Shown here: piece by piece, positions 143 through 61,468 of the stretch
Numbering within the stretch: position 1 is the first letter of the stretch
Layout: every line of letters starts with the position of its first letter
Assembly (NCBI GenBank): GCA_025642065.1
Contig: JAODUP010000129.1
Span: forward strand, 796,822 to 860,821
Length of the DNA stretch: 64,000 bases
Direction of reading: 5' to 3'
Source: Paralvinella palmiformis
Taxonomy: Eukaryota; Annelida; Polychaeta; Terebellida; Alvinellidae
Notes under the pieces: model-generated
What the model was told of the DNA's origin: nothing
Databases searched by the model: none
Seen by the model: only the letters and a program-made list of their open reading frames with translations
Position numbers and translations under genes: made by a program

Positions 143-374
143 ATTGTCACAGATTTGTTTGTAACGCTTTTGCCAGATGGTCTTCCCAACAGTCAATACA
201 ACATGGTTCTTGTGTTTGTTATGGGTGTTGGTAACAGTATCTTCAGTAATCTAGCAGTATCAGTTCCCGGTTGCGCGGAACTATCCTGGGAGCTTGTTCT
301 AGCAGACCTATCAGGAGACTACCGTTGTCCAACTGAGACCTTCCTGCTGGAAGCAGCTGGAACCTTTGTGTGCA
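143..374 (+). CDS. Exon 1: C-terminal part of an unidentified extracellular spacer domain
   Basis: Opens after ...gctttcag and ends at tgca|gtaagt, phase 0 in and phase 1 out. About 77 residues including PGCAELSWELVLADLSGDYRC and ending TFVC. I recognise no named domain. It directly precedes a GCC2_GCC3 module, as exons 23-25 do later, and both spacers end in a similar way (TFVC, KYTC), so they may be copies of one domain. The upstream exon and start codon lie outside the window; bases 1..142 are intron. Confidence 0.75.
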
Positions 375-3300: not shown

Positions 3301-5085
3301 CAGGATATGGCATACCTATGTGCAAGATTTACAGGACAAAACTCTGTTACTTAAGTCTCAAGTGACAATTTTGGCTTTTATACAAGTGCACCCCTGAGTC
3401 ACCTTTGTGTGAGTGAGTGAGTGAGTGAGTGAGTGAGTGAGTGAGTGAGTGAGTGAGTGAGTGAGTGAGTGAGTGAGTGAGTGAGTGAGTGAGTGAGTGA
3501 GTGAGTGAGTGAGTGAGTGAGTGAGTGAGTGAGTGAGTGAGTGAGTGAGTGAGTGAGTGAGTGAGTGAGTGAGTGAGTGAGTGAGTGAGTGAGTGAGTGA
3601 GTGAGTGAGTGAGCGAGTGAGCGAGAGCATAGATGTGTGCACATTTATTCTGTGATTGATTTAGGGTACATAGATGATAGATGATACAATATGTACCCAA
3701 AGGCAACTTCTTTTTAAAATATGCAGTCTTGTTTGTATGCACACCATCAGTTGAGTTGTGGAAAATAATGTACACCTACCAACTTGAGCAATACAAATCC
3801 TTGCACTGTGTCTCTCTCTAGTAATCCTTCTTGTTTTGGGATAATTCCTTGCATAAAGTTGTTCAGAATTTATCATTTAGATTCGAGCAGAACATTTTTT
3901 TCCGCTCATCTAGCTGTTACAGAAAACACTCTTCTTGCAGCCGACCCAGCAAAATGAGGTATGCATCCGAGTCCATCATGGTTATAGCATATAGTTCCCG
4001 ATTAAATTGTACACTGCACCAATCTTCTTTCAGTTCCATGTCCACCAGCCACCAAATATGTATCAGGGTGTCAGATATGTCCACCTGGAACATACCAAGA
4101 CCAAGCTGGCCAGAAAGTGTGTTGGTCATGTCCTACTGGCACATGGTCAAAGGAGGGAGCAGCTTCTCTAAAAGATTGTCATTGTAAGTGTTCTTATTAT
4201 CAGTACTTTCCAAAATTGTCCAAGAAACAGAGTCAGGTTTTAGTATTCATAAGGTATATACAAATATTATGGAGAGAGTTTAAGAAATACATTTGTTTGC
4301 TTGCCTAAACTGAATAAAAAGACACTGAGCAGATTGAGGTATTATTATTAAGTGATGTTCATCAAAAGAAATTCACCATTTGAACCTCTCTGAACATCAG
4401 AAAATAAAGCCTAACTCAGTCAGTCCCCACCTGCTGCTGACTGAATTTCCATCAGATAAGTACCGACTCCACTCTGGCTAACAAACTAGTGTCCCACCTG
4501 CTGGAATATTGGATACATTTAACCACTTTGTCTATAGCCCACATGCAAGTTCTGTAACATTGGTACAGTATTGCAAAATATGTATATAGCTTAGTAATGA
4601 ACATCCTATACAATACGTTTAATTAAAATACCTAGTAGAAACAAGGAGTGTTGTTTTATATCAGTCACTGAGTGGATGATTAAGGAGCCTGGTATGTGCT
4701 TCACTATCGTATGCCGTTCTTGAATGGGGTGAATGATTCACCCACCCACCTATCTACCGACCATCCAGAGTTATCATCTCCCTTATAACTGCTTGTTGTC
4801 ATATTGTGACAGTATTGTGACATCTAAGTCTCTGGATGTGTTACAACTAGAGGCCCTGAACAACAATAAACAGAGTAAAAGTACTCATGAGATATACATT
4901 GGCATCCTCTGTATATGTCTTGCTCATTATTTATGTCTAATACTGAACTGTTGATGATGTATGGCTCTTGGTTCAATAACTGATTTCTGCTAAAAAAATC
5001 AATCAGTCTTTGAAGAATCAATGGAATGTGAAAACAAAATCTTTGAACAATCATCTTTTGCAACAATGGACTGTATCATTATATG

Positions 5086-5156
<71 letters not shown>

Positions 5157-8100
5157 GGTGAATTCAAATATTAATGATATACTGTTACACAGAAGCATAC
5201 AAAAAGTGATAGTAACTACTGAAAACCAATCAACAAAAATCAATTAACTTGTGGGTAGTGGTAGATTTTACTCTTGGGTTGCTACAGGCTTTCTGAACCC
5301 TTTTTTGGGGGTGCCTCCACGATCTAACTGGTACCCCATAGGTAGGGCGTTTGGCCACAAATCTAAGTTCAAATCTCAGTGTGGACATGTCTGAAGGGTG
5401 TTTCATCTTTTATTTCACTGAATTACCTTTGGACGATGTGTGGTACATTTAGCCTACCTTGTTAACAAAAGTGCCAGAAAACATCACACATAAACATTTA
5501 AAGCCTGTTTTTAACTCTACCTGTCACTTTTCAATTTTGGTTTGGTCAGTTGTACTTCAATCTCTAGGCATCTTGTTGACTGCTAATTATTAAGGGCAAG
5601 TAAGTGTTCCTATAGTGCCGTAATAATATAATAATAATATGTGACATTTATATAGTGCCCTGTTCAGCTAGATAGCTGCTCTAAGGTGCTTTACAGTATT
5701 ATTATCCTGGCTCAGACCTGTTCCAATCCAACACACATCTCAACTCCTAAGGAAGCATACAATGCATGCTGCCATTATAGGCACAAAGCATTACTCTAAC
5801 TCATTGCCATCACATCTTGTCAGGTACTCATTTTGATGGATGGGTGAACCAGTTGCGGCTCCCGGAGACTCGAACCCACATCCAATTTGGCTATGAGTCC
5901 TATGGTCTTACTAACTGCGCTATTACAGCTGCAGTAGTAAGCAATACTAAGTCCAATGTGCTGCAGTTTCCAGTTCAAGTCAAATGACCTCTGTTTATCA
6001 TATAGTTGGCCTTCAGCTACATGCCCATGGTACACATGTATTAAATGTTGCACTTATTATTAATATTTCATTATTTCAAGCTTGAAAACATTTGAAAAGA
6101 TTACATCAATGAGGAACAAGATCCTCCTCTGTAACTTATTACAATGCAAAGACAATTCACATGAATTTTGGCTGTTGTCAGGGGTTATCAACTACTGAGG
6201 GGTATTTAGTTTAATCAGAGACAAATGGAGACTCCTCTTAGAATATTTGAAAATAAGTTCAAATGGTGAGTTTTTTCGTTTTGTAGATGAAGCCATGCAG
6301 TGCTGGGACACCAGTAACTTGTATGTGTCACATATCATGAAGATTTATTTCCAAATCTTTCATTATTTCTTTTATAACCAATGTTATTTTTCTCTCTTCG
6401 TTATAGCCATTTGTACTCCTGGTTATATATCACCAACACATTTAGCTCCTTGTACACCATGTCTAGTTGGTACGTATAGCATAAATGAGACCACCTGTGT
6501 CAAGTGCCCAGAAATGCACACAACAAAGTCGCATGCTACTCAAGATAGTAATGGGTGTGTAGGTAAGTAAATCCATTGTTTGCTTTCTGATACAAGTAAC
6601 ATATATCGGTGTTGATTTACTTCTCTTTTCAGTTTTCTCAGCAAATAACATATATTGTGCAGTTAACAGTGCAAACCTGTTACATTCTTAATGCCTGTTA
6701 ATGGTGTTATATATACCATTACTATATACTTTCACCATTGCATAATGTGCCATTATTAAAATGAACACCATGTTAGATTTTCAGCCCTATTTTATATGCC
6801 TCGTATAATAACAAAAGTAAACCACGATTTTCATTCTTTTAGAAAGAGTCGAGTAGTGGTGAGTACATGATGATGAGCTCACTTTTAATACATTTTGTCT
6901 ATTCTGTTTCTAGCCCTTTGTACCCCTGGCTATTTCTCGGGCACTGGCTATGCACCATGTGATCCATGCCCCAATGGCTTCTACAGCAATAAATATGGCA
7001 TGAGAGCATGTGAGCCATGCCCACCAAATCAAATCACTCTTAATCCTGGCGCAAACAGTCACAGTCTGTGTAGTACACGTAAGTAGCATCCAGAGTTAGC
7101 CATGAACATGTTCTGCCATTTAAATTGTTCTTTTAGAAGTAGAAATGCCACCCATAACATTTGTTGACACTTACCTTCACTGTTGCGTTGCTGCAGTGTG
7201 TGTACCCGTGGCTGTGAACTAAATAGTGAACGTCATGCTGGAGGTTTACGTGCTTCTCGTATGTGATTTCAGTATAAACAGTCATCAACATTATTTGGGA
7301 AATAAATTGTTATTGTATTGATTTGCAGCTGACTGTCGTATCTGTATGAATGCAGTTGGATGTACCGTTAGCAACAACTATCTGTTGTGTTTTTGTAAGC
7401 CAGGTAACCTGTTTAGTTTTCCAAACTCTTTAGCACAAATTTCTTCAGCCTCCACACATACACTATGATTGAGGTTAATATCCTTTATCGCATATTACTA
7501 TTTTTCACAGTGTTATTTTATTAACATCAAAGAGTAAAATGTACAATAATATTTGCCAGGATATACTGGAGACCTTTGTGAATCGGCAATTGACAACTGT
7601 GCATCATCGCCCTGTTATAACAATGCCGAATGTATTGATCTTGGAAGCACATTTGAATGCTATTGTCGCGATGGTGAGCTTCTTTGTCAACATCAGCCAT
7701 ATAAATGGCAGATCATCACAAATTAACCATTGTCATGAAATTTAAGCCAACTGAATATCAAATCTTCCCTATGTCCCTATACCCCATGTTGTCTCTTCCT
7801 CAGGATATAGTGGTGCCCGATGTGAACATGATCCAGATGATTGTATTAATCATAACTGCCTTAATGGTGGACAGTGCCATGATCTCAGCAATGGATTTGA
7901 ATGCCTATGTCCATCAGAACAAAACTACTTAAAACCCAGGCATGACAATTAATTGCCAATAAGTCTGTTATTGTTGACCCATTTGCTGTTTTAAACTGGT
8001 TATAATTCTGTTCTGTTCTGTACATTATAATGGTGACCTATGTAACAAGTCATTGTAAATAATCAATTATTAGTGTTTCATTTGACAAATCTGAGAACAG

Positions 8101-11100
8101 ATCATGTCTAAATTATGTAAATATCATAATTACATTTTAATATTGGCTTATTTTACTTAGATGTGAAATTGCCAGGAAAATATGTGATTTGAATCCATGT
8201 AAAAACAAAGGTGTTTGTCTGGAACAGACTGCATCACGTCGGGTCTGCCTGTGTCCTGATGGATTCTATGGCAAAGACTGCCAGCTCAGACTAGGTGAAT
8301 GTCACAAGTCAGTGTGTGTGTGTGTGTGTGTGATATTTTAAATTACAATTTAAACATTATGATGTAGACATTTCTTGTTTGACTGTTTGATTCTGTTACC
8401 ATGACATATTTATACCATGTACAATAATGACAGCAGCAAGTAATTTTTCATTTAGATGCATGTTTGTCACGTCCCTGTTACAATGGCGGAACATGTCATG
8501 ATAAGGCAGTTGGCTACAGCTGTTCCTGTCCACCTGGTTTTATTGGCTTTAACTGTGAGATTAGGGTGGACACTTGCCAAAATGTTGATTGTGGACCGAA
8601 TGGACGGTGTATCGATCAATACTATAGTAACACACATTACTGTTTATGTTCAGAAGGATATGAAGGTATGGCTTATTACTGTGATTTAAAAATGAAATTA
8701 ACACACATGCAGTTTTATAATAAAATGAATAAAATTTCCTTTTATTTGCTGTATTATGTTGCTGTACAACCCGTTATCTTCGCATGATTTAATTCTACCT
8801 TTTAACTGGGCTCAGACCTATTTGGAGGGATATGAGAAAGAATCATGATCCAGTAAATGAGGAAGTCATGAAATCATTAGCAAGACCTGTGGGATGGATT
8901 AGGGCGGTGCCACCTGGCAATAATTTCAGTCCTTCAGTTCTTCAAAATAGTTATACAGCTTCACACAACCCATTCCTCTGATTATGATATACCCTCTCAG
9001 TCCCTCCTATACAGAAATTCTGAAATCACTGGAGACTCATTATGAAGCCACCACCAAGTATCATCAAAGAAGATCGACTAATAAGTGGCTTTCCTCAGTT
9101 GTTCTGCATACATCACCTGGATACATAAAACTGCACTAACTTATGCCTGACCATAGTCCATATCCATGCTCAAACTGGTGGAAGTGGTTTCCAAGAGACT
9201 CGTCCACATGATTTTATGGTCGTTCCTAGGTTATCTGAGGATTACACATATCTTAGTTGTTAATATGACATGACATGGTCAGATCTCCATACACCCCTAT
9301 CCATGATTTGGGGGCCTTTGAAGTGACTCACTGCATTACTATACACCGAACCAGTATGTTTATTATGTGAAAAACTTTTTATGGCAACTTTTGTGCACAG
9401 AGTTCGGTAAATGGACCAATAGTATGTATACTTGTCTTTTATTAATACTGACGTTTATCTCAAAGTTAAAATAACATTATTGTCAACTGTGAGGTAAATT
9501 TATTGTAACACAAATCAGGGTTCAAATTTAGTACCGTTAAATGTTAAACCTATTACCAAGAAATGGAGTTTAACACTGCATTTACCTGAAGCTTTTTAGT
9601 GCACACCAAATACTATTGTACAGATGCAACAGTGGAATATACTCAATGGTAACATAGATAAGTATTTTTGATGTCACTTTTAGAGTGTTTAGCATGCTCA
9701 GAAAGTCTTTGATGTCCCACCATAATTTATATTACATTGCCATTTAGCATCATAAGCCATTGACAAAGTTGTTTAGAGCTAAAAGGTTAAGCTATAACAA
9801 GAAGTCTGGTTTCTTGAGTCTCACTGATTGGTTCGTTTGTTTAACCTTGACACTGGCCACACCTGGAACGTATGGATAAGGGGTGACTCATCAGAGAAAC
9901 ATCTCACCTACACAGTATGAGTTGGATTTTAACCCACATCTAAGAGGTTTTATGCACAATGCTATAGCCACTGAGCTAACAGAGAGCCCTGATGAGTCTT
10001 AGATTGTCAGCTGCATAATGACATCCTCATCAGAGTTCATGGAAATAAATATTTACAAATTTAGCAAGGGTGCATTAATTAAAATACCTCATCTTGAAAT
10101 ACATTGATTTTATGTGATGTACCATGTTCATTACAGAAAGCTGTATTGTTTATGAAGATGTAGCTAAATGCTTCAAAGATTACCAATAAAACATTTCAAC
10201 CATTCACCATTTCAGACTAACTTGCAATAAAACCTTTTTGGGGGGAGGGCTTCTTTTTAACACTGATTTGAACAGTTTATAAAGAAGGTAAAATGTTCTG
10301 TTTTTAATACGTGTATAAATATAAAAAGCTTATTTCAAGGCATGCGTATACATAACAAATATATATAATTAAGGCAGATGGCAATCCCCCAGTAAGTCAT
10401 TATAATGTTGGTTAAAAGTAAATGACCCGTTTTTGCTGATTTTAAACCTGTATCATGCACTCTGTAAATCTTTGATGTTTTTCCCCGGCTAGCATCCATG
10501 GGCACTTGCAGGCCAATAGATCAGTGCGCAAATAGAACCTGTGTTCATGGCACCTGTCTGCCAATGACTGACAGTTTCATCTGTGCATGTGACACTGGAT
10601 ATGGTGGAGTTGAATGTGATATCAATATTGATGAATGCACATCCAACCCATGTCAGAATGGAGGCACCTGTTTCGATGGTGTGAACGGCTTCACCTGTTT
10701 ATGTTCAGCAGGCTATACGGGTAAGCATTGTAATAGATTATTGGTAATATTAGCTTTCTTAACATTTAAAATCCATTTTTCTAGATCTTAAGAATAATCA
10801 TTCTATGTTATTTACTAATACGTTTAAAACTGTATTCGTCAAATAGGTAATATGTGTGAGATTGACATAAATGAGTGTTTGAACACTCCTTGTGCATGGG
10901 AAGCCACTTGCATCGATCTTGTGGATGACTACGCTTGCCTTTGTCATTCGGGATACACCGGAGAACGTTGCTTGGTGTGTAAACAATATTTTAGCTAAAA
11001 TATTCTCATAATCTCCACATCATAAGTACAAGAATATTGCAAAAAACATATCATATAAGCATTATTAGTTCCAGTTCGTCTGTTTTTAAACGAAGTTGTA

Positions 11101-12644
11101 ATCTAGTGACAAAAAATGCTTTCGATCAATGAAATGTTCATACAATATCCAATGGGTTTATACTCGGAAATACATTTATTCTTACGTGTTATTAATTCCA
11201 GGAAGATATTAATGAGTGCTCGATGGATCCATGTCACAATGGTGGCTCCTGTATCAATCAGATGGGTACATTCTTCTGCCAATGCACCGAAGGTTGGCAG
11301 GGAGAGAGATGCACCGAAATGAAGCTGAGCTGTCAGAGTTATCCGTGTCGGAATTCTGGCCTGTGTATTGATCTGCTAAATCACTTCTACTGCGTGTGAG
11401 TAATCATTGCCAGTACAATACAGTCATACTTTCAATGCACGTCCACAAAATTCATCAACAAATCATTGGATGCAGTGAAAACTTGGGAGGGATAAGCAAG
11501 ACTGAAAGGATGAGTTTTCAGATGGTGATGGAAAGAAACTATGCTATTTGCAGGGTTTCCATGGCTCCTGGAAAATAACAAATTAATTTTCCAAGTCCTG
11601 GAAACGTCATTAAATTTTACAAAATCAGGAACTGTTCTGGAAAAGAGTACCAGTATATAGTACATGGTCTTGATAGCCCATGTTAGTTAAAATTTATATA
11701 AAAGTGGGTGGATCAGACGGCTAGAAGTAGATGAGGAGGAGGCTGTACCATAAAATGTCAATAATTGATTATACAACGTCCTGGAAAATGGTAATTTTGC
11801 CCTGGAAAAGCCCAGGAAATGTTCTGGAAAATAATATTTACCTGGCTATGGGAACCATGTATTTGATGACTTAACATGTCCAGGGAGTGAGTTCCTAAGA
11901 GTAGGGACAGAAATTGAAAAAGCACGAGTGCCAGCATGAGTTTTTACCCAGGGAACAGACAATAAGTGGTACCATCGTTTTTTGATCCTTTATGCATATT
12001 CAGAAAATTGACCACTATAAACATTACTCGCATATTGTTTTCTGTATTGTCAGCCATTGTGTAGTGATTAAATAGCAATGCCACCAGAAACACATTTACT
12101 TGGGTAAAAAACCTCTTCATTCATGTGATATAATACAAGAGTGAAATTAATGAAGGAATACAGATGGTTCAGCTGTTTAATTTAATGGTCCTAATGACAC
12201 CAAATAGTGTATGGTTGAATAACTGGATAGACAATGTACTGGTTTTTATTTCATCATGCTACAAACGGCATACAAACTTATCAAGGGAGTGCATCTAGAT
12301 ATCGATGTGACCTCCCGTCCATTATAAAGTCATCCCCAAATCGCCAGTCATTCACACTGATATTATTCCAGGTACCTTATTTCACCTCAAGTTGTATGAT
12401 GATTGTGCTTTTAGCATAGCATCACCTACACCGTGGCATAGGTTGATGGAGGTGATGAGCAGAGCATAATTACACAGAGCTTCATCTATTGAAAACATTA
12501 ACCTCCTCGTACAACTATCTATTCAGAGTTACTTTTTAGAAGTAAATGATGTTGACTGTTTAACATATTTGAATTTTGCATAAATTGTATTTGGGATTTC
12601 CACTATAGAGTGCTTTCAAATTGATCTTGCTAGTAAGGGCACTA

Positions 12645-12676
<32 letters not shown>

Positions 12677-15600
12677 GGGCATTGCCCAAAATGCCTCGGA
12701 TAGATTTTTTTTAAAGTTTGATTTTCATAGATCTTGGCATTCATGTTGTTTGGAATAACTTGATAACAAAAGTATCAGTATTCGTTTCCACTGATGGCTA
12801 CTCAACTTGTTGAAACCACCCTGAGACAGATTCATTATGTAAATAAATATGGGCCAGTATTAAGTTAGTGATAAGAGCTTTTATTCCTTCAGCATTATTT
12901 TACTTCAGCCAACTACCTGAAGTCAAACTACCTGAAGTCAAACTACCTGCAATCAGTGTTTGATTAGATGCGTGTATGCGAACCACATGACAAACATTCA
13001 TTTTAATTACATCAGTTGTGAACAAGTATATTATTATTGTGAATTAGGTCATTCTTTTATTTCCACAAATTCAAGTATTTACAGTTTTTTACACACACAC
13101 ACATACACACGCGCGTGCGCACACACACACACATATATATATATATACATATATATATATACACCCTGCACTACCCCACACCACACACACCACACATAAC
13201 AAGACACCACAACACACTCACACACAAACAACATATTTATGTCTATCAATTATAAGTGCTCCTTAGATATATTTGATCTAGTTCGCTATCTGACAGAAAA
13301 AATGAATAGTTTATAGATGTAATCCAAGTTTATTACAGATTGTTTGATTTGTGTATTTTTAGCTGTTCTATAGGTTACGCAGGAACTAAATGTGACACTG
13401 TGATTGATTTCTGTGAAGCTGCCAGTCCTTGTAAGCATGGTGGCACTTGCATAGATCAACCTGACCAGAATACGTTTCTATGTAACTGTCCAAAAGGTAT
13501 GTTGACTATAATATACTGAACTATCTGCCAGTACGTAATTAAGAGTTCACTTAGAATCTGGCCAATGGACATTTCATTCTTCTTCTTAATGCATCACTTT
13601 AGGATTTTCTGGATTAAGCTGTGAAATCCAGCTGGATCCGTGTTCTGCGCTTACCTGTATGAATGGTGCTTCCTGCCTGACACATCTAGATGGATTCACC
13701 TGCCAGTGTCTGCCGGGTTTGTTCATTTTGCTATTAAGCCATTGTTCATCATCATGTGAAATAAAGCGCCTAATCATTTTTGGTTTGCACATGTCATAAA
13801 CATGCGTTAGTGGCAAAGGTTGAGCTTTACGTGTGTTATGGTTCTAGGATTTACAGGGACAGTTATGCGAGATAAACATCAATGAGTGCAAATCAGATCC
13901 ATGCCAAAAAGGATTTATGTGTATTGACCTGATTGATGGATACAACTGTCAGTGTCCACAAGGACGTGTTGGAGAGAAATGTGAAAAAGGTTAGCAGACT
14001 ACCTACTGAATACTTGAATATTGACACAATGAGTAAAGAATTAAAAAATATTACATCCGACTATTCTAATTGTTTTCTTGTGTGTGACCTTCACACCGAG
14101 ATTGTTTCAATATGGAAGACCCTTTAATGAAAACCATATAACATTGATCATAATAATTTTTTGTTTGTCCATACGGCTGTTCTTATTTAGTTATTTCTGT
14201 ATTATAGCAGTATGCTAGTTGGAAACCAGTTTAAGGAAAACCCTGTAAAATTTTAATGAGAGGCGGTGTTGATACAGTGTTATTGTTTGTTTTGTTGATA
14301 ATCAAATATAATATGATATCGTATAATATTTATATGTTCATGATGTTTTGTAAGCATTAACCCTGATGTTAATTCACTTCAGTGCCAAGCTATGACTATG
14401 ACTTACATTTCTATCTGCCCACTTCTCGTGCCAAGCTGAGATCTTTGTTGTTACTAGAAGCCAAAGTGCTGTCATGTAGTTTGTGGATACGACCAGAAAA
14501 ACCTGGGCGACTACTCACTGTATATGGAGTGTGGTAAAACAACTTTTTGTCTGCAACTGTATCCCATGTTTAATCATAATATGTCCTTGCTTACAATACC
14601 CACAGCTTCTGTTTAAAGGCCGTATTCTTTGTAGATGAAAAAAACCTGTATTGTTGGTTGACTTTCAATTCATTTTCAGTCTTATCAATGTGGCGATTCT
14701 TGTTTATTTTTGTATGATATAAATCAGCTGTTTGGGTAATCACTCATTTTAAAATAAAATTATTCATGATTAGTTCCAGTGATTGCACTGACTCCGTTCC
14801 CTATGAGTTGCTGTTCATTGACGTATCAGATAAGATTGTTCTTGGAATCCATGGATTAGGGCTAAAGAATATACATGCTCCATTCAGAATTGCTTCAGAA
14901 CCAATTTGGATTCATCTGGCTGTGTCACTGGATCTGGACATTGGCCTTCTGAGACTTTTTTACAATGGTCTCCATCAAGAATTCAATTTAGTGCCAAAGT
15001 TACAAGCAAGTTTGCCCAAATTGTATGTAATTTTTCTAAACAATAATACCACTTTTCCACAACAATGACTCTTTTTTTCCACACTCATTGAAATATAAAT
15101 ACAAAGAAAAGACAATATTTTAAGATATGGATTTTAGCTTCACATGAAACCAGTCATGGTTATGATAACCGCATGTTTTAGATTATTTTTAATGACATAC
15201 ATTTCACCAAAGTCTCCTTTTGTTCTTAATTACAGCATGTCCATCATACTAGGCATGTCTGCTGGTGGTGATTCAAGTTTTCTGGGTCAACTGAGTCAGC
15301 TGTTCTTTTGGAACAGGGATCTTTCATATGAAACGGATATAGAACCAGTTAATAAAGAAGTAGAACCTCCCTGTAAGCTGGTTAATATATTCGATCTGCT
15401 CCACGGTTGGTCTGATTTTATGATAATAAATGGAATGACCAGGATAGCTCCAGCTAGATGCCAGGATAAGTACAGGAGGTACAGACCCACAACAGGTTTG
15501 TTATCCTGATGAAGGTGATTCATTTGCAAGAGCAGCATTCAGAAATTATCGTGTTGCTTTTGAAATGTCCAACAGAAAGTCTTCATGTTTTGAATATCAA

Positions 15601-20066: not shown

Positions 20067-20102
<36 letters not shown>

Positions 20103-21387: not shown

Positions 21388-21431
<44 letters not shown>

Positions 21432-22619: not shown

Positions 22620-22666
<47 letters not shown>

Positions 22667-29781: not shown

Positions 29782-29854
<73 letters not shown>

Positions 29855-30563: not shown

Positions 30564-30614
<51 letters not shown>

Positions 30615-37506: not shown

Positions 37507-37543
<37 letters not shown>

Positions 37544-44055: not shown

Positions 44056-44095
<40 letters not shown>

Positions 44096-47000
44096 CTCAG
44101 AATGTCTGGGACAGGTTTATTATTACTGGCTAGGTATCAGTCATTTAACTGGCTGAAGTTTTTTTTATATGTGTACCAGGATATATATTTCAATATTTTG
44201 GTGGCAGATTTCATATGTGAAAGTTTTATTTCTTGCATAATTAATTCTGTAATTTATGTGTAACCTAAACGCAAATAAATATGAATTTTGTATGTGCTCC
44301 ATTAAATACACTATATGTTGTATTCTGCTTCATCAGCTGCCTGTAAACCCGGCCGTTACAGAGACACTAATATCAACATCTGTAAACCATGTCCTCTTGA
44401 TACCTACCAACCTGAAAGTCTTCAGACATCATGTATTCCTTGTCCTGATATTACTAAGACTAAATATATTGGAGCTGTGAATGAATCATCTTGTCACTGC
44501 AAGTATCACCTATGTTGATTTATTTCTGATTTATCATTCGTAACATGTTTTATGAAGTATGTGTGCTAAAAGTCTAACTAAAGAGAGTATTGTTCCTCAT
44601 TAAATGGTTTATGATAAATTGATTTTGGAATCAGTTAATCAGATTTTTCCTTTTTTCACCCATTGTTTATAGTTTGTCCTGATGGTTATCAGATGTCCTC
44701 TGAACAAATATGTGAACCATGTCCACGTGGTACCTACAAAAAGAGAGAAACTTGTATACGTTGTCCTTATGGATTTACAACCTCTGGTGATGGTTCTACC
44801 GACCAACATGACTGCAACATTGGTATGATTTATATGATTTTGTGATAACTTGAAAAGTTTCACTTCAATATACTTTTTTTTAGAATGAAGTTCATTTCTT
44901 GTCACCATTCCTTCAAACATACAGTGACGCCTCCATGGTCTAACTGGTAGCACAGTTGGCATCAGATCTCAACCACCTGTCTGAGTTCAAACTCTAGAGT
45001 GGGCATGTCTGCAGGGTGTTTCATCTTTCATTTCACCTCATTATCTTTGCAGGTCACTCAGCCCATTTAGCCTAGCTTGTGCACACATAAAAACATCATC
45101 AAACATCAACACAAATGGGTATCCATCTCCTAACCTGCACACTCATACATACACACTCATACATACACACCTACACACCTACACACACACACACACACAC
45201 ACAGAGATACTCATGTATGCACATGCACACTCATTTATACCCTCTCTTTTGTAATATATTTTTTTAAATACATAATTATTGGTAATTTGTTTTACACACT
45301 GTGCATAATTCATATTAAAAGTATTGAATACAAGTCAGTTTATTAATAACCCAGCTTAGCTGGAGAGGAGAGACCTTCTTAAATTCTAAAGTCTCCTGAA
45401 ATCTCATGACAATGGATTTATTATATAATACCAATAGATATCTTGAATTAGACATGAAATGGACACCGCAGTAATGCAGTGTTTATAATCCTGCACTGTA
45501 AATTTCTGTGTTTGTGATATTTGTTTCCTCACACAGCAGCCCCCTAGATGATATGTCTCGGGTATGACCAGCACTGAAGCTAAACTACTCAACAGAACAA
45601 TAACAACAACAAAAGCATTAGACAAGAAATGGGTTATCTTTTTCAAAACTTTATTCCAATATACCATTACAAGATATCACAAAGACACAGAAATTAGTGT
45701 TTTGAGTGGAAAGTTATTTATTTTGTATTGTTTCTTATACACCCACAAACTTAACATTGAGAAAATGAATGCTTTTATTCACATTCAGTACAAATGCCAG
45801 AGATCCTTTAGTCTTTATAATCTTTAGACCCGAATATCTTTGGTTTGTCTTCTGTGCTCATATTTGGATATTGAAATTTTAGTATCTCTAACATTTTATA
45901 GATTTTTCTGTCTGTAGCCGTGTAGGTGATATTATATTTTAAATCACTTACAGGGTTTTTACGGACATATTATTTGTGGTATTATTATATTACATATTAT
46001 TTGCACAGCGCCTTTGAATGGCTCCTGCTAGTAAGGGTGCTTTATTAAATATACTTTATTATTATTATTATTTGCAAAAGGTTATTCCCTGAAAACCGTT
46101 TTTGAGATCTCCTAACAGCCCTGTAATCAACATGAAGGGAAGCAAGTGTAAAAGGAGAGACAGTTCAATTAAAAGACTGAGATTTTCAGCACTTCCTCGT
46201 TACTGGTTTTAGATTAGATGTTTAACATGTTAAAGGAGTTGATCTAGTCTTATTTGTTGGTTGTGTGCTAAACCTTTATTTAATGGACTTTATTTGGCAC
46301 GTTAGCCTCTGGATTTGTCAGAATGTTCAATCCCAAAATCAGGCCCCGGGATTTCTTTCCATTTCATTTATTTCTTAAATCTGGTTTTGTTTATTCAGTA
46401 GAGTTTACAGACACTGGTTTTCAATCAGCACAGTAAGCTAGTAAAATCACTGTGTGGAGATTATTTTTCCATTCTTAGCAAGGTCGCATAACACGAGATC
46501 CTATAAAGGATAAACTAATACAGAAGTACTCCTATCAGCTGTGAGTTAACTCTCCAGATGTGTCCTACCTAGTGACATAAAACATTAATGCCAGTCATTG
46601 TCTAATTGATATCTAAAGGCATTTATGGCAGAAATGTGCCCTTAGTGTATCCATTTACATTACTATGACAGAACACTGGTCACAGTAATATAACACTACA
46701 GCATCCATCCCAACCTAAAGCAAGAATGGGTCTATGGAGGTAATGTTAGTCAGTCGGGAACTCTGGTAAACATGTCTGGGTCCGCTGTTCTTAACTCTAG
46801 CCATAAACATCAACTTTACCGTGAACCGCAATTTTTGTGTTTACGTTAATCACCAGAGTTGCTTCCAGAGAATGCCTGTGTATGATTCCCATGATTTTGA
46901 CAAGATTGGCACCAAAATAAGAATCTCTGGAATGGGTCACAAACGCAGTGGCCACCTCACAGTTACTCGGCTGTGATGCACATGAAAGTTGTCTATTCTT

Positions 47001-49063
47001 GAGTTGCCCTACTCATTTCTATTTAATGTTTTGCCAGAATCTGAAGAATTCATGATTTTTATTAACGTGTAGTAAATAAAGATATTGATCTGAAATATAC
47101 AGAAATGTGTTTTCAAGTTACCCATGCAGATATATATATAAGATTTATTCGCCTCAGATATTCTAAATGGATTTATTTATTACAAATTTAAATTGGACAA
47201 ATATAAGCCATGAAGAGTGAACCAAAAGTATCCAAGATTCTAGTACGTTAGTGCACGACGGAAGCTATCAAAAGTGATTTACCATTCTGAGTAGTAATTG
47301 TGTGGAAAAACTACAAGTCTTTACCACAGATCAATTTCATTTACGTGTGTGGATCATCTTTTGCGTCACCTCACTATTTGTGGAGGGAGCGCCTCCGTGG
47401 TCTAGCTGGTAGCATGTTGGATCACAGATCACTTCCACCTAAGTTTGAATCTTGGAATGGGCATATCTGAAGGGTGTTTCATCTTTGACTTCGCTTCATT
47501 ACCTTTGGAGGTCTCTTGGCCCATTTAGCCTACCATGTGCCCAATAGTCGCCGTAAAAGTTCATTTCACTTGTACTCCCATGTTCTAACCCTGATCCTAT
47601 TTGCTAGTGATAGTCCTCCTGTGGCATGTTTCATCCTTAACAAACTACCATAAAGAAGGATATTTTATGTACTCGATTCTCTTGCACCAGTTCAATGGAC
47701 ACCATGCAGTTGATCCTGTAGTCAGTTGTTTAAAGTGCTGCATTATTTTTAGTATCATGTAGAAGTGGTCAATTCCGAAATGAGACAGAAAACGTCTGTG
47801 AACCATGTAAGCGAGGCACCTATCAACCGGAGCCCGACCAGACGACGTGTCATTCTTGTCCTTACCATACGACTACTGAACAGACTGGAGCTAGAAGCCT
47901 TTCCCAGTGTCAGTGTAAGTGTAGATGGGTAGCCATAAAATGAATATGTCGCATTGCCCATTGATTAACTCGTGAGATGGAAATTGTTTTGGTGAGTTGC
48001 AGCCTTTTTTTCGTTGCTAATCGGATTATTAATGGAAGCTGGCACACGGTGACATTAATTGAAACCCTTTTATTATTTAGTCTTCTGTTTCTCTGGATAT
48101 GAAGAAACAGCTCTGGGGAAATGTACACCATGTAGAATTGGCTACTACAGAAATGCTGATTTAGATCTAAATGGAGCTTGTGTGCTTTGTCCAGAAGAGT
48201 ATACTACAGTTGGCGAAAATTCCACTTCACTGGCTGATTGCAGAATTGGTAAGCTTTGACTTCAGGACAGTGAGAACATGAAGTGCCGTACGCTAGCCAT
48301 TTTGATCGTATGTTGTTTGTGCCATTACCGAGTGTCCATATTTCTTTTCTCTCCCATTCTTCCGATCTGGACGTGGTCATTAGTACTCGATGATAATTGC
48401 CCAGCCGTTAGAATATCAACATTAACAAGATTGCTAACATGTATATAAACGGAATTGCTAATATGAGAATAGAGACCAACTTGCCATGCCATTTATTGAG
48501 TCTGACTGATCCACAGTGTACAGAACATTTAACAATATTACTTGCAGCTAACTGTTCAGCTGGTTGGTACCGAAGTAGAAATAATAAATGCCATCCGTGT
48601 CCTAGTAATTCATATCAGCCTAAGAAATGGCAAAATCATTGCATACCATGTCCTAATGGCTTAGAGACGATTGGACCAGCCAAGAGAAAGCTGTCGGATT
48701 GTCAACGTAAGTCTCAATTAGTATGTAATGACATTTGTCACAATCTTTTAATGAAATTTCTCATTTGTGTTCATTCTGGTTTTCTCTCTGCCTTTACGTT
48801 GTAAACACCTGTACTGTCTATATTTATCACACACACACACATATATATATATATATTTTTGTTTTTTTGTTTTGTTCCAGTATTCTGTCCATCTGGATAT
48901 GAGGCAACCTCAGACACCAAGTGCAGGGTTTGTGGTTTTGGTTACTACAGAGATGCAGAGACTGATCCTTTTGGTTCATGTAAATCATGTCCGGAGAAGT
49001 ATATAACTGCCAGTGATCAGGCTACATCACTATCAGATTGTATTGTTGGTATGTCATAGCCTA

Positions 49064-49103
<40 letters not shown>

Positions 49104-49230
49104 GTCCTATGTATTATAATATATACGATGTATTTGATAAATGTTCAATGTGAATTTGCTGTTACTACATACTGCTTGTTATCAAATGTATTATATATGT
49201 TACATATGATGCAATATATGTTATTGTGTG

Positions 49231-49279
<49 letters not shown>

Positions 49280-52200
49280 CATTCAGATATCTATAATTCA
49301 ATCATTCTTCAGCTAACTGTTCAGCTGGCTGGTATAGAGGACCAGATAATGAATGTCATCAGTGTCCTGCTGGCAAATACCAGCCTAATAAGTGGCAGAC
49401 GAGTTGCATACCATGTCCTGGTAACATGACAACAGCTAAACCTGGACAGACAAAACAACTTTCTTGTAAATGTAAGTATATATTATCTTCTTATACGTAT
49501 GTGTTGCCAAGAGGTGTAAGCCAATTGAAAAATAAAATAACTTGATTTTAATTATGTATTATACGAGATGTATATAAACCGTATATGAAATAATTCAGTG
49601 CTTTTTGTTTACTTTTATTTGTTTATTTTTTAAGTGGATTAGTTACTCCAATGGAAACCAGTTTTCAACATGGTTATTAATATTTAACGTTTAATACTTG
49701 TCTACTAATAATTCCCTTTAAATGAAAGTGAGAATAAAATTACTTAATGCTCTCTAATATACAGCAGGTGTGTTAGTTTCATTAAAAGCCATTGCAACCA
49801 TGTTATAGTTCAGTTCTAGCTGCTTCTTGTTTTATCCTATCAAACTTCAATCAGAATATCTTTACCATACAATTTTCGGCTCTTATTTTTCAAAATTGAT
49901 ATCCTTTGGAACCCATAACATGCCTGCAGGGCGCCTCTGTGGTTTAACTGGTAGCGCATTGAACCATAGATCACTACCACCTAAGTTTGAATCTCAGCGT
50001 GAGCATATTTGAAGGGTGTTTCATCTTTGAATTGACTTCGCTTCAATACCTTTGTAGGTCACTCGGCCCATTTAGCCTATCATGGGCACAAAAGTGGCCA
50101 TAATACATCAATCATCATCATCATACCAATTGCATGCCTTTGTTTATAGTTTCTTGTCCAGCTGGCCATGAAGAAACATCAACAGGCCATTGCCATCCCT
50201 GTGGCATTGGCTACTACAGAGATAATGATAAAAATCCGTTTGGACCATGTACATTATGTCCAGAGAAATACATCACCAGCAGCGAGTATTCCATTTCAGA
50301 AGATGAATGCACCATAGGTAATTAGTAGCTTGGTTCAGAATGAGTCGCATATGCATGCATGATAAAATTAAATCACTTTATGCTGTTTATTTTAGAACTT
50401 AATTACTCAGAGTCTATTCTGAACTACATCCATTCCATATCAACAACGGTTTTGTTTGTCTTTTCAAGCCAATTGCTCAGCTGGCTGGTATAGAATGATC
50501 AACAACAAATGTTACATGTGTCCAGTTGGTTCATACCAACCAGAGAAATGGCAGACCGGGTGTATCCAGTGTCCTGATAATACAACTACTGACAAATCTG
50601 CTAGGACAACTAACACTTCATGTAGATGTATGTTGTTTTACGCACTTTTTTTAAATTTAATGGTTTTACTTCTTTAATTGCATATATATTGTTTGTTTTC
50701 ATGATGTTTCTGTCAAGTAAAGGATGCCCCATGTGTGGCTTTACCATTTGCAATTTGAAAATGTTTTAGATTGTAAAGCAGCTTAGGTGTAACCCTGTAT
50801 TTCTTGACTTAGATATGTTGTACTGATGTTGTTTTTAAACCTTACTGACTTAATCAGTTAACTTTTTTACAGCATATGTTACATTATTTCAGTTTACTGT
50901 CCTTCGGGATATGAAGTGGTTCCATATACAATGACGTGTAAGCCATGTAAACAAGGATACTTTAAAGACAACTTGATTGATGTTTTTGGTTTCTGTGTAA
51001 GTTGTCCAGATGGCAAGACTACACCTTCTAGCCAAAGCACCTCCATTGTACAGTGCACTATAGGTGGGTATTGTCTCCCTTCAATCACATTTTGTTTGCT
51101 ACCACAAACATAATTTGTACAAGTTCATTCATTTGAACATTCCAATGTTGGCTGTATCTACTTTTGTACTTGCATCCAAACAGTCACTTGCCAGACCTTA
51201 AATAACAGAAACTGACATTGAATGGGCTTGTTCGGTTGTTGAAAACAAATACAAAAATTAATTTGTTTTTAATAAAAGAAAATTTGAATAAATAATAAAT
51301 GAAACTGTTGCGTTACTTACAAAGTTCAGCTTAGGAGATTGAATTCTGCCGCTGGAACAGGAAAGATAGTGGGTCTTGTCAGTATAATGTGAGATAATAG
51401 ATGAGCTACATAGGATCAATACCTTATAGCAAACATTAATTTTTATCCTGACCAAAGCCCAGGATAATGACAATGTCAAATGACAGTCATACCTGAATCT
51501 TGTCATTCTTTATCTGTCATCAAGAAGATTTCCCTTAACATTTTATGACACACCATTTGAAAAAAACTAGCTGAAACACTCATTAAATTAACAATATGTT
51601 TAATGATTGATTCATGGAGATTGTTGAGGGCATCCAATGGCACAGTGGTTAGAACACTATACTGAAAACCTCCAGATTATGGGTGTGAATCGGGTGCATG
51701 GCTGTTTGTGGGATTTATTTCCCATAGGAGTCAGCCCTTGGCCATATGTCCCACACAAGATCAGAGCTGACTGTAAGTAACTTAATCCACCCACTCACTC
51801 ATGGATATTCATACTTTGCAAATTTATTCACTGTTCAGTCGGTAGTTTTCATTTAATTTATTTGTATCTAATTTTCGGACTGGGGATATAATCCGTTTGA
51901 TAAAACTGCCAGTTTGACACATGATTACTGGGTAAATCGCTAAAGAAAAGACTTAATTGCATATGTCCATGCAGATTTGTCGAAAGGATGAATGAATTTA
52001 TATCTGAGAGTTTCTTTCTTTTAAATGCTTCCCGATTTATTCAGATTAGAACCACTTTAATATGACAACTGAACATGTTTACTGCATGATCAATAAAAAC
52101 CCTATCAGTCATAAAGACAATCTGGAGTGTTTAAAATTGTAGATTTATGTATTATAATCATTAGCTTCAGTGATTATATTATTGACATGTTATATTGTTA

Positions 52201-54367
52201 AATCTGCATGTATACTTATTTTCCTCTCACAACACTGAACAGCAAATTTCGAGCAGTCATTGTTTTACTTGAAGAAACAAATGAGACAAAGTGGTTTATC
52301 ATTTATGCAATTTCCAGTCTTGGTTAACATTAAGGCAGTCAGTTAATGAATACCAAATATTTCTCTTGTATTTGTTAGCTGCATGTAAACCAGGCCAGTA
52401 CCGTGATATATCAAAGAATATGTGTAAGTCTTGCCCGGTAGGAAGCTATCAAATGCTGAAGTGGCAGAATGAGTGTGTATTTTGTGATAATGGCTACTCT
52501 ACACTACACGAGGGCTCTATCAGTACAGCTGATTGTTTGAGTGAGTCTCCATATTCTAATTGGTCATTTGTTAATTATGTTTCTTACACTGACTAAAACA
52601 TCATGTACCATTTTGTTAATTGGTTGACGCTGCTAAAGAAATTAGTTAATTCATTAACTTAGACAATGGTATCATATGACGCCAGTGTATTAGAACCTGT
52701 GAGAATTTTCTTTATACAGAAATATGTCCAGCTGGATCTGAAACCAATGGTACAAGTTGCATACCTTGTTCCTATGGTTATTACAAGGAGTTTTCAGGTG
52801 TTAATGAGTGCCATCAATGTAGTGATGACAGGCTCACGTTGTCAGTTGGTGCCAAACATTCATGGGAGTGTGCATATGGTTTGTTTTAATCTCAGTTTTC
52901 ACTGATATATACCATAATTTTTCAATATAGTGAGCATGGCCTAGTATTTAGAATATGATAAAGTTTTCTCTTTGTATCTTATCTTAAAATTGTTATTTAC
53001 AATTATTGTCATGTTAAGTGCCCTGTGAGCTTTGGAATTGTTCTGTAATAAACTAATTGTTCTACACATTTCTCTTCAGAAAACTGTAATGCAGGAAGTG
53101 AGTTCATTCCAGACACAGGCAAATGTCAAAGCTGTCAGCAGGGATTTTACAGGAATGGGACTTCTGGACCACTGTGTACACCATGCCCTGATAGATCCTT
53201 CACAACAAGTGGGACGGCAGCCAAAAATGTTAAACAATGTACAGTTAGTGAGTAAAAGCGTGTTTCAATCCTTGAAATTATTTTACTTCAAAATAATATT
53301 AGCCAGTTTTTATTTGATGAGAAAGTGAGGATTTTGTCATAAGTTCCTTCCTTGTTGTCTGATTATTATTATTGTTGTTGAATACTGATAATTGTTTATT
53401 AGTCTGATTATTTAATCACAAAGTGGTTTTGAAAAAAATAGAAAATTGCTCTCCTGAGTTCACTAAATAAATATTTTAAAGACTGATATATCCTGGCCAA
53501 TTATCAAAATAAAATACCTGATGAAGTACACAACTTTTATATAAATTACTATCAGTTTCTGTGCCCCTCAATTGAATTTATGTCCATTTTGGCATGTGGG
53601 TAGGATCATAGGAATATGGAATATTAAAAGACAAAGACTACTTATAGTTGTATGGCTGTTACTGTTACATACGGGTTGTTGTGTGGATCTATTTCATGAC
53701 TGGTCACACCAGAAGCACAGCTGTGGTGCACATTGATGTTTATTGGTAATTGATTGTAGCATGATGATGTCGTATAACGTATAATGAGTCATCTTGAGGC
53801 ATTCTCCCACAATGTCTGAATCCTAGGATCAATTCGTTACACAATGGATATTGTTAAATAATGAACATAATTGTTTGATGAATGTAATTTTATGATGTTT
53901 GTCTTTTGGTTTGTTATTGCTGATGAACATTTACTTAATAATTATATATCTTATGGCAGAATGGGTGTTGAATATTGCAATATTTGCAGTATTGTGTGTT
54001 TAATTTACTTGATAAAATGCCTATTTCAATTAGTTTCCAAAATGAACTGTTTCAGTATTTTGCACACCATTTATTTCACTACAAATGTCACAAATCTATT
54101 CTAGAAAGTTGTAAAGCCGGAACCTACTTAGGACCATACAATACATGTTCTAACTGTCCAAAAGGGGAACCTACCAACCAAAAAAATGGCAGACATCATG
54201 CATCGATTGTCCAGATGGCCAGAAAACATTGAATGAAAGATCTACCAACATAGTGGATTGTTACTGTGAGTGTTTTTAAAAATGGAGTTCAGCTACATAA
54301 AGACCTAGTATTGGTACATCACAGTTTAAATGGTTTATTGTGGTTATTCATATAATTTCATGTTGTG

Positions 54368-54438
<71 letters not shown>

Positions 54439-57400
54439 CACTGGTACAGATGATGATGAGTGCTACCTTGGGAAACACAACTGCTCTGAGAATGCTGCAT
54501 GTAAAAATACTGATGAAGGATTTGACTGTACATGTATTGAGTGGTTTGGAGGAGATGGCTACAACTGTACACGTGAGTCTATCATTATCCTTTCTGATAC
54601 ATTATACGTCACGGTAAATTCTTACTTCTTCTGAGGGCATTCCAATGGTGCAATATGATTGCTTATCCGTGCTCTTTATTTGGTCAGCTGACAACAAAAA
54701 AACCAGAGCACTCCAGTGGCACACAGGGTAGAGCATTGTCCCGCAAACCTCCAGTTTGTGGGTTCAAATCTGGCTAATATCTGTATTTGTGAGATTTGTT
54801 TTGCCTTGGCTAGATTTCCCAGGCGTGACCAGTGTCGAAGCTAACCAACTCAAATCAACTCTTACTTCTATCGTTTTCATTATTATAAGTAACAGTTGCA
54901 GAAGTAGAATATTGTACATTATGGTATTTTATTAGTGATGGAAGTAGTATTAGTATTAGTAGTAGTCGTAGTAGGTATAGTAGTAATAGTGGTAATGGTA
55001 ATGGTAGTACTATTTATTGTTTTCTTTTAGAGTGGGCTGTATTTTCAGTACCTGTTTGAAATTCATTTTTCAATCAATCTACTCCGTTTTCAAAACATCA
55101 CTCTAATTCACTTTATATAAAACATACGAAGCTCAAGACTTTTTCCAAAACAATCTCAAACATTTAAATAGTGAATATAGAAAGATCACAAGCAAAGATG
55201 GCATTTGAAATGAGTAAACGTTTTCTGTTTCTAGATGCGTGTGACTTGGGTTATTGTAGAAATGGTGGAACTTGTAAAATCAATGGCGTCACAAGGAAAC
55301 CATTTTGTTTCTGTCCAAAGTATTACGTTGGAGACCGTTGTGAAGTGAGGCATCCAGGTAAGACGAGACCCGATTGATTTTCACTATGTTGAATACTGTA
55401 ATATTTAATTTTCACTTTATTCCTTTTATATACCTGAATGGAAAAAGGTATTTAGTATTTTTTTGTTGTTGTCATTTTTCTCCTTGCAGGAGGTATTGAC
55501 AGAACTGCTCTGATAATTGGTTGTACCGTTGGTGGCACAATGTTTGTGATCCTTGTTGTCCTTGTTAGCCTTGGAGTGTCGATCGACCTGAGGTATGATC
55601 ATTCTTCTACTACTTTTTTGTCAAGATGTAAATAATTAAACATGTTATTTAATTAACTGAAATACAAAAATGCTCCATGAATCATTTACAGACAACAGAA
55701 GTTCACAAACATTTCATGGATAATCTGTGAACCAAAACAGTTCATGTCGTGTTCCTGTACTCTTCTAAATTTGCATTCTTGAACACTTGAAGAATATTCA
55801 AAGAACCTCAAAAGCCCAAAGAAGTTGCATGAACAATTCAAGAACCACAAAAGTTCACAAACACTTCATGAACTGTTCATTAATAGTAGTAACGTTGATG
55901 AACTGTTATAAAATATTTCAAGAATCACGAAATATTCATGAATATTTCAGTAAAAGTTTATGAACCATAATAATTAAAATAATACTGTATAAATAACTTT
56001 ATAACATCAAAGTGAACAATTTTTATACTCCCTTCTTTCAAAGATTAAAAAAACAAGGATACCAAAACAATTATTAGCCAAAAATGATGTAATTAAGCTG
56101 AAAAGTCTAACAACAAAAATTGTTATCCTATAAACCACCTTTATCCCTATGAAGGGGTCCATCCTTTACCATTTTACACAATTGTTAAGTTACAACCCCC
56201 CCCCCGACATGCACATACAGCCACACTTGTACATACAACCACTTACATATCAAGAGGATTGCAACAGTGACCTACATTCAGATCATAAAACTTTGTTTCC
56301 TTTTAGATAACTCATTCAGAGCTGGTAGAAACCTGACTCAACTCAGAATATTAAATAAAAACCTCAAAATCCAGTACCTTTTTTTGATTTGACCACCATC
56401 CATTTTGTCTACTCATTGCATACAGTCTTAAAATATAATGAATCAATAGTTGATAAATAGGGTGGATTTCAATTGTTGTGGAAATATGATGATGATGATT
56501 TACTGATTGCCAATACATAAAATCTCCATGGATTTGAGTTGTCGGCTAGTTGAGGGTGTAGTTGGTGCGATGTGCTTCTGATTTGTTTGTTGCACAAATT
56601 AACCAAAGAAAACAGTTGTTGTTACTTCCCCTTCTCCAAATAATAGGCAACTAAAATGTCTTCAGCTTTCTTTTTTATTAACTAGATAAGATAAAGATGT
56701 GCCAGTATTTTTGGGTGAATTGAACTGTTCTTTACTGTTTGAATATGTGGTATTTTGGATCCAGATATACCATGAATATTTATATGATGACAGAAAATAA
56801 CATAAAAGGAGGTATAAAGTATTACTATTAATAGGATTGGTTGTTGAAACTGGAGTGAATTCATTTGAAACATAATGAGAGAGAGAGAGAATAGATTTTA
56901 TTCACAAGAAATTATATAGAGCCATGTTTGATACAATGCAAACTGAATGTATAAACAAAATTAATTTAAAAAAAAATTATTAAAAATTTAATTAATTAAG
57001 ATTTAATTAATTAAAAATTAATTAATTAAAGAATTAATTAATTTAAAAATAATTAATTTCACTATGTAGACTGTCTGAAGTCAGAGCAGATGACAGACCT
57101 GGAGAGGAGACGACCCAAAATTGAATCCCAGTTAAAACAACCAGCTTGAAAAACCTTTTAACCCTATTTTTTAATAAATAGAATTAGGTTAAGGTTCATA
57201 ATAATTGCCTGGACAAAACAAGAGATCTTCGAAATGAGTGTTATCACACCTTACATTAATTGGATAGTGGGATAGCATTTCATCCTTAAGCAGTTTTTCA
57301 GCATAAATTGAGAAATTAATGCATTTTGAGCACAATAACTGCATAGTTAATGTGTGACTGGATAAGGGCAAAATAATTTGTTGGTTTTTATATTTGCCTT

Positions 57401-60329: not shown

Positions 60330-60357
60330 GCATATTGCTTGGCATCCAACACCGACA

Positions 60358-61421: not shown

Positions 61422-61468
61422 GAGGCATAAGTAACAACCAAGTTCCCACGTGTATATATGTAAATAAG

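What the first reader, a model, noticed from the sequence alone, without database searches (positions are those of the whole stretch)
143..59350. Giant membrane receptor combining HYR, pentraxin, PAN, EGF and 34 ephrin-like modules with an NPxY tail
Seen: 60 exons in phase coding for at least 3,300 residues with 34 GCC2_GCC3 modules, 16 EGFs, pentraxin, PAN, HYR, one helix and an NPAY-bearing tail. Known: SVEP1/polydom shares several of these domains but is secreted and lacks such an array; CED-1/Draper/MEGF10-type engulfment receptors pair EGF-like ectodomains with NPxY tails. Inference: a lineage-specific recognition or engulfment receptor.
Basis: partly seen in the sequence, partly recalled or inferred. 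Interest (0 to 1): 0.82.

Follow-up and report, generated by a model that had tools for sequence, protein, structure and literature searches.

The report
Uninflatable-family protein with enlarged module array
This is a very large single-pass membrane protein of the family of the fruit-fly apical protein Uninflatable, in which a pair of small cysteine-rich modules next to the membrane appears to have been copied over and over into a 31-module array, the longest among the relatives compared here.

Summary
I model 59 plus-strand exons (143-59350): 3 + 31 Ephrin_rec_like (GCC2) modules, 16 EGFs, a pentraxin/LamG domain, PAN, HYR, one membrane helix and an NPAY tail. Corrections: two exons (near 13860 and 54165) break frame in this assembly, and the gene reaches about 28 kb upstream of the window (C-type lectin, LDLa, 2 CUB, 7 CCP, 2 EGF_CA, 2 HYR).

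It is neither a CED-1/Draper type nor, most likely, an anchored SVEP1. It belongs to the Uninflatable (Uif) family: same domain order as full-length arthropod-type and mollusc proteins, and the arthropod-type ones hold peptides encoded by published fly uif sgRNAs. Small-array members end in four modules (m1-m2-B-A). Profiles made from those members read the window's array as m1, m2, B, then alternating A/B (25 of 25). So the array grew by duplicating the B-A exon pair. A PAN domain precedes it, as in one clam relative. The same genome holds a second Uif-like gene with 3+4 modules.

Best reading: an apical epithelial receptor on an elongated stalk. Engulfment is unsupported; function is inferred from the fly.

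The parts
143..374 (+). exon, second part of the domain (called SEAL here, by position) that lies between CCP and GCC2 modules in relatives; not HYR
   Evidence: model; no HYR in Pfam; the gene continues upstream of the window. Assignment by position and eye, not by a profile
4034..7078 (+). 3 GCC2/Ephrin_rec_like exons (4034-4183, 6407-6562, 6914-7078)
7329..13989 (+). EGF-like repeats 1-14 in 11 exons
   Evidence: frame break in the last exon near 13860
14383..15495 (+). pentraxin/LamG_3 domain, exons 14383-14533, 14780-15022, 15236-15495
   Evidence: Pfam LamG_3 1.4e-6; family profile i-E 1.5e-9 in ORF 15138-15506 and 0.0014 in ORF 14373-14534
18820..19098 (+). PAN domain exon, starting with the basic stretch RNKR
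   Evidence: PAN_1 6.2e-10; Pfam finds PAN also in one clam relative, P0234
19223..19669 (+). third HYR domain, exons 19223-19354 and 19574-19669
   Evidence: family profile i-E 3.3e-6 and 2.6e-9; Pfam HYR 7.2e-9
19832..20023 (+). CCP-like cysteine-rich exon
   Evidence: position and a very weak profile match, score 1.1; no Pfam hit alone
20377..21912 (+). probable second SEAL domain, exons 20377-20593 and 21804-21912; an exon between them is missing from the model
   Evidence: weak family profile matches, scores 2.4 and 3.4, model
22089..53247 (+). 30 intact GCC2 exons: m1, m2, B, then alternating A/B, then two atypical modules
54105..54265 (+). 31st array module (34th in all), exon of 161 nt with a frame break in a G run
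54450..55357 (+). two membrane-proximal EGFs (54450-54572, 55235-55357)
   Evidence: Pfam EGF_3 1.2e-7 for the first, EGF 0.053 for the second; pattern
55490..55592 (+). transmembrane helix exon
   Evidence: mean hydropathy 2.55 over 21 residues
58945..59350 (+). cytoplasmic tail with NPAY, stop codon
   Evidence: one place in the genome

Best explanation
A spiralian, mollusc-like member of the Uninflatable family. From sequence: the gene encodes CLECT-LDLa-CUB2-CCP-EGF_CA2-CCP-HYR2-CCP-SEAL-GCC2x3-EGF14-PTX-PAN-HYR-CCP-SEAL-GCC2x31-EGF2-TM-tail, the order that I read in the full-length relatives P0178 and P0160, with PAN added and the membrane-proximal array enlarged (the SEAL and last CCP assignments are weak). 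The four modules m1-m2-B-A of small-array relatives became m1-m2-(BA)n by repeated duplication of a two-exon unit; this is easy because every module is one phase-1-1 exon. Inferred: it is displayed on the apical face of epithelia; the array is a disulphide-braced stalk that lifts the lectin/CUB/CCP/EGF head away from the membrane; the head binds matrix glycans and EGF-repeat receptors such as Notch in cis, tuning their access to ligand; and the NPxY tail recruits endocytic adaptors that carry the complex to endosomes.
For: Pfam content: P0178 has CLECT, LDLa, 3 CUB, 5 Sushi, 3 HYR, 2 F5/8C, LamG_3 and 7 Ephrin_rec_like; Lottia P0160 is alike with 17. Window gene upstream part: 7 Sushi, 2 CUB, 2 EGF_CA, 2 HYR, LDLa; C-type lectin halves by family profile, i-E 7.8e-5 and 2.3e-11. 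Arthropod-type proteins as Uif: fly uif sgRNA oligos printed in PMC12867482 encode FNIKHS, present in P0177, and YNETYM, present in the P0178 tail; the domain list in PMC3340373 fits. Array origin: A/B alternation in 25 of 25 modules with profiles from 8 small-array proteins; lag-2 identity 0.45 against 0.31 at lag 1. Controls: 15 unrelated GCC2 arrays alternate for 2-5 modules, 6 SVEP1/SCUBE-type proteins for 1. NPx[YF] in 9 of 30 relatives' tails and in the window, 1.4 expected for the 31. Module predicted at pLDDT 95 and nearest to thyroglobulin, Eph and 4-1BB modules, with weak Foldseek E-values (best 1.1e-3).
Against: No expression, localisation or binding data. No F5/8C domain and only 2 CUB modelled, against 2 and 3 in the fly. 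Pfam lists no lectin domain for the half given to it, and the exons between the two lectin halves were not modelled. Two frame breaks in the assembly. The domain tree does not separate SVEP1 from Uif: SVEP1_Patiria falls beside the C1712 gene (79.6/84) and SVEP1_Capitella in a weak group with annelid proteins (57.8/40). 21 of 30 relatives' tails lack NPx[YF], among them the 5 arthropod-type ones. The two youngest duplicate exon pairs together show no purifying signal (pS 0.117, pN 0.114). With the small-array profiles several other spiralian arrays alternate poorly: longest run 3 in 6 of 21. Loss of fly Uif gives only weakly penetrant lineage defects in the sensory organ (review PMC11240559).
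Confidence: 0.83

Rival explanations
1. A SVEP1/polydom relative that has independently gained a membrane anchor and an array.
For: Shared order HYR2-CCP-SEAL-GCC2-EGF-PTX (SVEP1 order partly recalled); SVEP1 rows fall among Uif rows in the tree; SVEP1-named P0185 and P0214 gather more bits on the window's stretch than on C1885 (611 and 620 against 330 and 425), though that stretch is six times longer; Capitella P0253 itself has a hydrophobic stretch near residue 1778.
Against: Proteins with the same head and tail occur in arthropod-type, annelid and mollusc sets; locus C1885 matches VWA-bearing Capitella P0253 best, 761 against 372 bits for the window gene; no VWA in the scanned upstream part.
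Confidence: 0.09
2. An engulfment or pathogen-recognition receptor of the CED-1/Draper/MEGF10 kind.
For: EGFs, lectin/PAN/pentraxin modules and an NPxY tail; fly Uif acts in glia (PMC12867482), where Draper also acts (recalled).
Against: No EMI domain listed; its relatives are Uif, known for apical membrane and Notch roles.
Confidence: 0.1
3. A decaying gene: the two frame breaks are real and the protein ends before the membrane.
For: Frame breaks near 13860 and 54165; pS about equal to pN in the two youngest exon pairs together; a second Uif-like gene exists at C1712.
Against: No stop in the 33 other module exons nor inside the other modelled pieces; of 12 module pairs, 8 older ones with a finite dS have dN/dS 0.11-0.41; the 54105 exon can be left out in frame, its neighbours being phase 1 (coordinates).
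Confidence: 0.12

Closest known systems
Drosophila Uninflatable (Uif) and arthropod-type relatives (P0176-P0181)
   Same: domain order, about 18 EGFs, 3 HYR, single TM, membrane-proximal GCC2 modules followed by 2 EGFs
   Different: array 31 instead of 4; PAN added; no F5/8C; third CUB not found; tail not conserved
Mollusc and annelid Uif-type proteins (Lottia P0160, Aplysia P0161, Ruditapes P0001, Ylistrum P0171, Capitella P0173)
   Same: same architecture and, in many, an A/B expansion
   Different: at most 24 modules counted in any of 32 relatives (several are partial, so counts are lower bounds) against 34 here
Mercenaria P0234
   Same: lectin-LDLa-CUB-CCP-HYR head, GCC2, TM, and two PAN domains just before its membrane-side GCC2 modules
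   Different: 6 GCC2 in all by Pfam, few EGFs, no LamG listed, longer tail
SVEP1/polydom
   Same: HYR, CCP, GCC2, EGF, pentraxin
   Different: VWA at the start, many C-terminal CCPs, secreted (recalled); here no VWA, a GCC2 array and a TM
SCUBE1-3
   Same: EGF plus 3 GCC2
   Different: another locus of this genome, C1738, matches SCUBE1-named P0251 best
CED-1/Draper/MEGF10
   Same: EGF-like ectodomain, NPxY tail (recalled)
   Different: EMI domain and atypical EGFs not seen here

Membership tests
Uninflatable | single-pass TM with short tail after 2 EGFs | tested here: met
Uninflatable | N-terminal C-type lectin, LDLa, CUBs | tested here: met
   lectin by family profile only; LDLa and 2 of 3 CUBs by Pfam
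Uninflatable | 8 CCP and 3 HYR | tested here: met
   7 Sushi + 2 HYR upstream, 1 HYR and a CCP-like exon in the window; Pfam counts 5 Sushi in P0178, so counts are approximate
Uninflatable | 18 EGFs followed by LamG/pentraxin | tested here: met
   2 EGF_CA upstream + 14 + 2 by pattern, LamG_3
Uninflatable | 2 F5/8C domains | tested here: not met
   none; also none in Lottia P0160, so this may be an arthropod feature
Uninflatable | m1-m2-B-A modules before the membrane (feature defined here, not in print) | tested here: met
   window modules 4, 5, 6, 7 score best as m1, m2, B, A (m5 by 52.8 against 51.2)
Uninflatable | apical location, Notch binding | not testable with these tools
   known for fly only
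Uninflatable | groups with Uif and apart from SVEP1 in a tree | tested here: inconclusive
   window with five bivalve sequences at 97.3/95, but SVEP1 rows are mixed in
SVEP1 | VWA domain | tested here: not met
   absent from the Pfam scan of the modelled upstream part
SVEP1 | secreted, C-terminal CCP array | tested here: not met
   TM and GCC2 array instead
CED-1/Draper/MEGF10 | EMI domain | tested here: not met
   not listed
CED-1/Draper/MEGF10 | NPxY in tail | tested here: met
   GKNPAYF

The most novel reading that the evidence does not exclude
The array is an adjustable stalk. Because every module is its own phase-1-1 exon, modules or B-A pairs can be left out by splicing without losing frame, so one gene could make receptors of many heights, while exon-sized gene conversion keeps some modules alike: exon pairs 38421/44337 and 38734/44673 are 91% and 86% identical, yet the intron between the two exons is only about 59% alike.
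Probability: 0.15. Interest if true: 0.78.

Novelty: new variant of a known kind. Interest (0 to 1): 0.52.

Why it matters
Uif is described in print as a conserved insect protein (abstract of PMC13178913), and the word ephrin, under which its GCC2 modules are filed, occurs in the main text of none of the three Uif papers checked. Here the family is traced into annelids, molluscs and other bilaterians, with a clear way of growth (duplication of an ancestral two-exon unit) and a wide range of array lengths. That makes a simple question testable: does the height of an apical receptor head above the membrane change what it can bind or which receptors it can inhibit?

Tried and rejected
Rejected: HYR in exon 143-374. 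Rejected: my first models, which held spurious small exons (13811-13812, 32083-32217, 35411-35434, 49765-49767) and lacked HYR and the second SEAL; corrected. The second protein search was flooded by EGF proteins; of its hits none entered the comparisons except as rows of the scan and, for P0034, as one query. Haemocyanin beta-sandwich as a mollusc marker found nothing and its control rang nowhere, so the phylum stays inferred. A search for a second allele over the last exons found none. Paper searches listed no paper on Uif outside insects by title or abstract start; these are listings only, of an open-licence library. Rows left out: SVEP1_Ptychodera and others too short for the tree (32 rows kept); relatives without a clear helix for the tail count.

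Full report
What is there. The window is the end of contig C332 (796822-860821) of a 594-Mb genome whose species is not given. A home-made gene finder (codon scores, splice scores, phase-aware path) and profile searches give 59 plus-strand exons from 143 to 59350, 3268 codons (count). The core is 33 intact GCC2/Ephrin_rec_like exons, phase 1-1, 150-174 nt, with AG acceptors and GT (31) or GC (2) donors and no stops; a loose cysteine pattern for the module hits 30 times on the plus strand, never on the minus strand and never in 30 resampled sequences. Pfam supports Ephrin_rec_like, EGF, LamG_3, PAN_1 and HYR. The Pentaxin model itself is under its cut-off, so 'pentraxin' rests on the LamG_3 hit and on the family profile. 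One helix and a tail with NPAY follow.

The gene does not begin at 143. Same-strand exons continue upstream: LDLa, two CUB, seven CCP, two EGF_CA and two HYR by Pfam, and two halves of a C-type lectin by a profile of 13 relatives, the first about 28 kb upstream. Pfam lists no lectin for the half given to it, and what lies between the halves was not modelled. Two exons break frame in this assembly: the EGF exon near 13848-13989 and the last array module, 161 nt long. No second full-length match to 53000-55700 was found in the assembly, so error and real damage cannot be told apart here.

What it is. Protein searches gave 33 hits and 123 hits, 120 listed; many are unrelated GCC2 arrays, some of them longer than this one (P0007 has over 50 modules). 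Several full-length animal hits share the order lectin-LDLa-CUB-CCP-EGF_CA-CCP-HYR-HYR-CCP-SEAL-GCC2x3-EGFs-LamG-HYR-CCP-SEAL-GCC2-EGF2-TM, which I read by eye in P0178 and P0160 and checked for content with Pfam. 'SEAL' is my label for a domain that I did not identify further; in the window it rests on weak profile scores and on position. They are Uninflatable: two fly uif guide sequences printed in PMC12867482 (passages) encode FNIKHS, found in P0177, and YNETYM, found in P0178, and the domain list in PMC3340373 (passages) fits P0178. In this genome a second locus, C1712, encodes a like protein with 3+4 modules, a helix and a short tail (model with some spurious exons, read by eye). Among the fetched loci C1885 matches VWA-bearing Capitella P0253 best and C1738 matches SCUBE1-named P0251 best; two other SVEP1-named proteins gather more bits on the window's longer stretch.

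How the array arose. Neighbouring modules are 31% alike, next-but-one neighbours 45%. Profiles built from the window's A and B modules read the membrane-proximal array as AABA in seven small-array proteins (three unnamed arthropod-type ones, scorpion, nematode, hemichordate, oyster); an eighth, the beetle Henosepilachna, reads BAABA; spiralians read as longer A/B strings. The less circular test uses profiles built only from the sequences of those eight proteins (their module limits had been set with the window-made generic profile): modules 4-6 of the window score best as m1, m2 and B, and modules 7-31 by A-minus-B score alternate in 25 of 25. Taking the best of all four profiles, 3 of these 25 (25, 26, 28) score best as m2. 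Fifteen unrelated GCC2 arrays alternate for 2-5 modules, six SVEP1/SCUBE-type proteins for 1, and 21 spiralian relatives for 3-17, 6 of them only 3. The plainest account is repeated copying of a two-exon B-A unit. Part of it is visible in DNA: four exons at 37755-38883 and four at 43528-44822 in the same order, three of the four pairs found as repeats. The PAN domain in front of the array has a counterpart in one clam relative, P0234, which has two PAN stretches just before its own membrane-side modules.

Selection. Of 12 module pairs, 10 gave a finite dS: eight older pairs have dN/dS 0.11-0.41, while the two youngest give 0.39 and 2.66 on few changes, pooled pS 0.117 and pN 0.114. In those young pairs exons are 91% and 86% identical while introns are 54-59%, which suggests exon-sized gene conversion; I did not test this further.

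How it may work. In the fly, Uif sits on the apical membrane of epithelia, is needed for tracheal inflation and glial growth, and when overexpressed can antagonise Notch in a way that depends on Notch's extracellular domain (passages); binding of Notch to Uif was reported to guide Sara endosomes, though loss of Uif has only weak effects on that lineage (passages in the review PMC11240559; the original papers were not read, and PMC2790384 is not held). By analogy the window protein is an apical receptor or co-receptor. One module is predicted as a compact fold (pLDDT 95) nearest to thyroglobulin, Eph and 4-1BB modules, so a row of 31 would make a stalk; stalk stiffness and height are inference. 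NPx[YF] occurs in 9 of 30 relatives' tails and in the window, 1.4 expected by shuffling, but in none of the five arthropod-type tails, so an endocytic role is plausible, not shown.

Limits. The tree (32 rows, several represented by one block only, the C1712 gene with 577 of 932 columns) groups the window with five bivalve proteins at 97.3/95 but mixes SVEP1 sequences among Uif ones, and its root is arbitrary. There is no expression evidence. SVEP1 domain order beyond the listed Pfam content, and the features of Draper-type receptors, are recalled.

Noticed in passing
38421-38883 and 44337-44822: Duplicate exon pairs far more alike than the introns beside them, with a shared rare GC donor after the A exon: possible exon-sized gene conversion.
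   Followed up: partly
G000:C1712 569941-605847 (L036, L019-L021): Second Uif-like gene in the same genome with 3+4 GCC2 modules, a helix and a short tail; several extra cysteine exons before its HYRs look unusual.
   Followed up: partly
P0234 (Mercenaria): Clam relative with a Uif-like head, two near-identical PAN domains and few EGFs: PAN and EGF content vary within the family.
   Followed up: partly
60331-63090 and C332 about 742-744 kb (L009, minus strand): Two copies of what looks by eye like the same non-LTR retroelement reading frame, one just downstream of the gene.
   Followed up: no
34914-35988, minus strand: Reading frames that look by eye like a P-element/THAP-type transposase inside an array intron.
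   Followed up: no
54700-54863: Dispersed repeat in an intron, matched at 71-88% on many other contigs.
   Followed up: no
18820-18840: Basic stretch RNKR at the start of the PAN exon; P0160, P0001 and P0234 have basic clusters in the SEAL domain. A fly uif 'presumed cleavage site' is mentioned in PMC12867482.
   Followed up: no
L009-L010, minus strand: Upstream neighbours look by eye like an LRR/Toll-type receptor and a serine hydroxymethyltransferase gene.
   Followed up: no
P0166 (Intoshia linei): An orthonectid (group recalled), a strongly reduced animal, keeps a partial protein of this kind with 23 modules counted.
   Followed up: no
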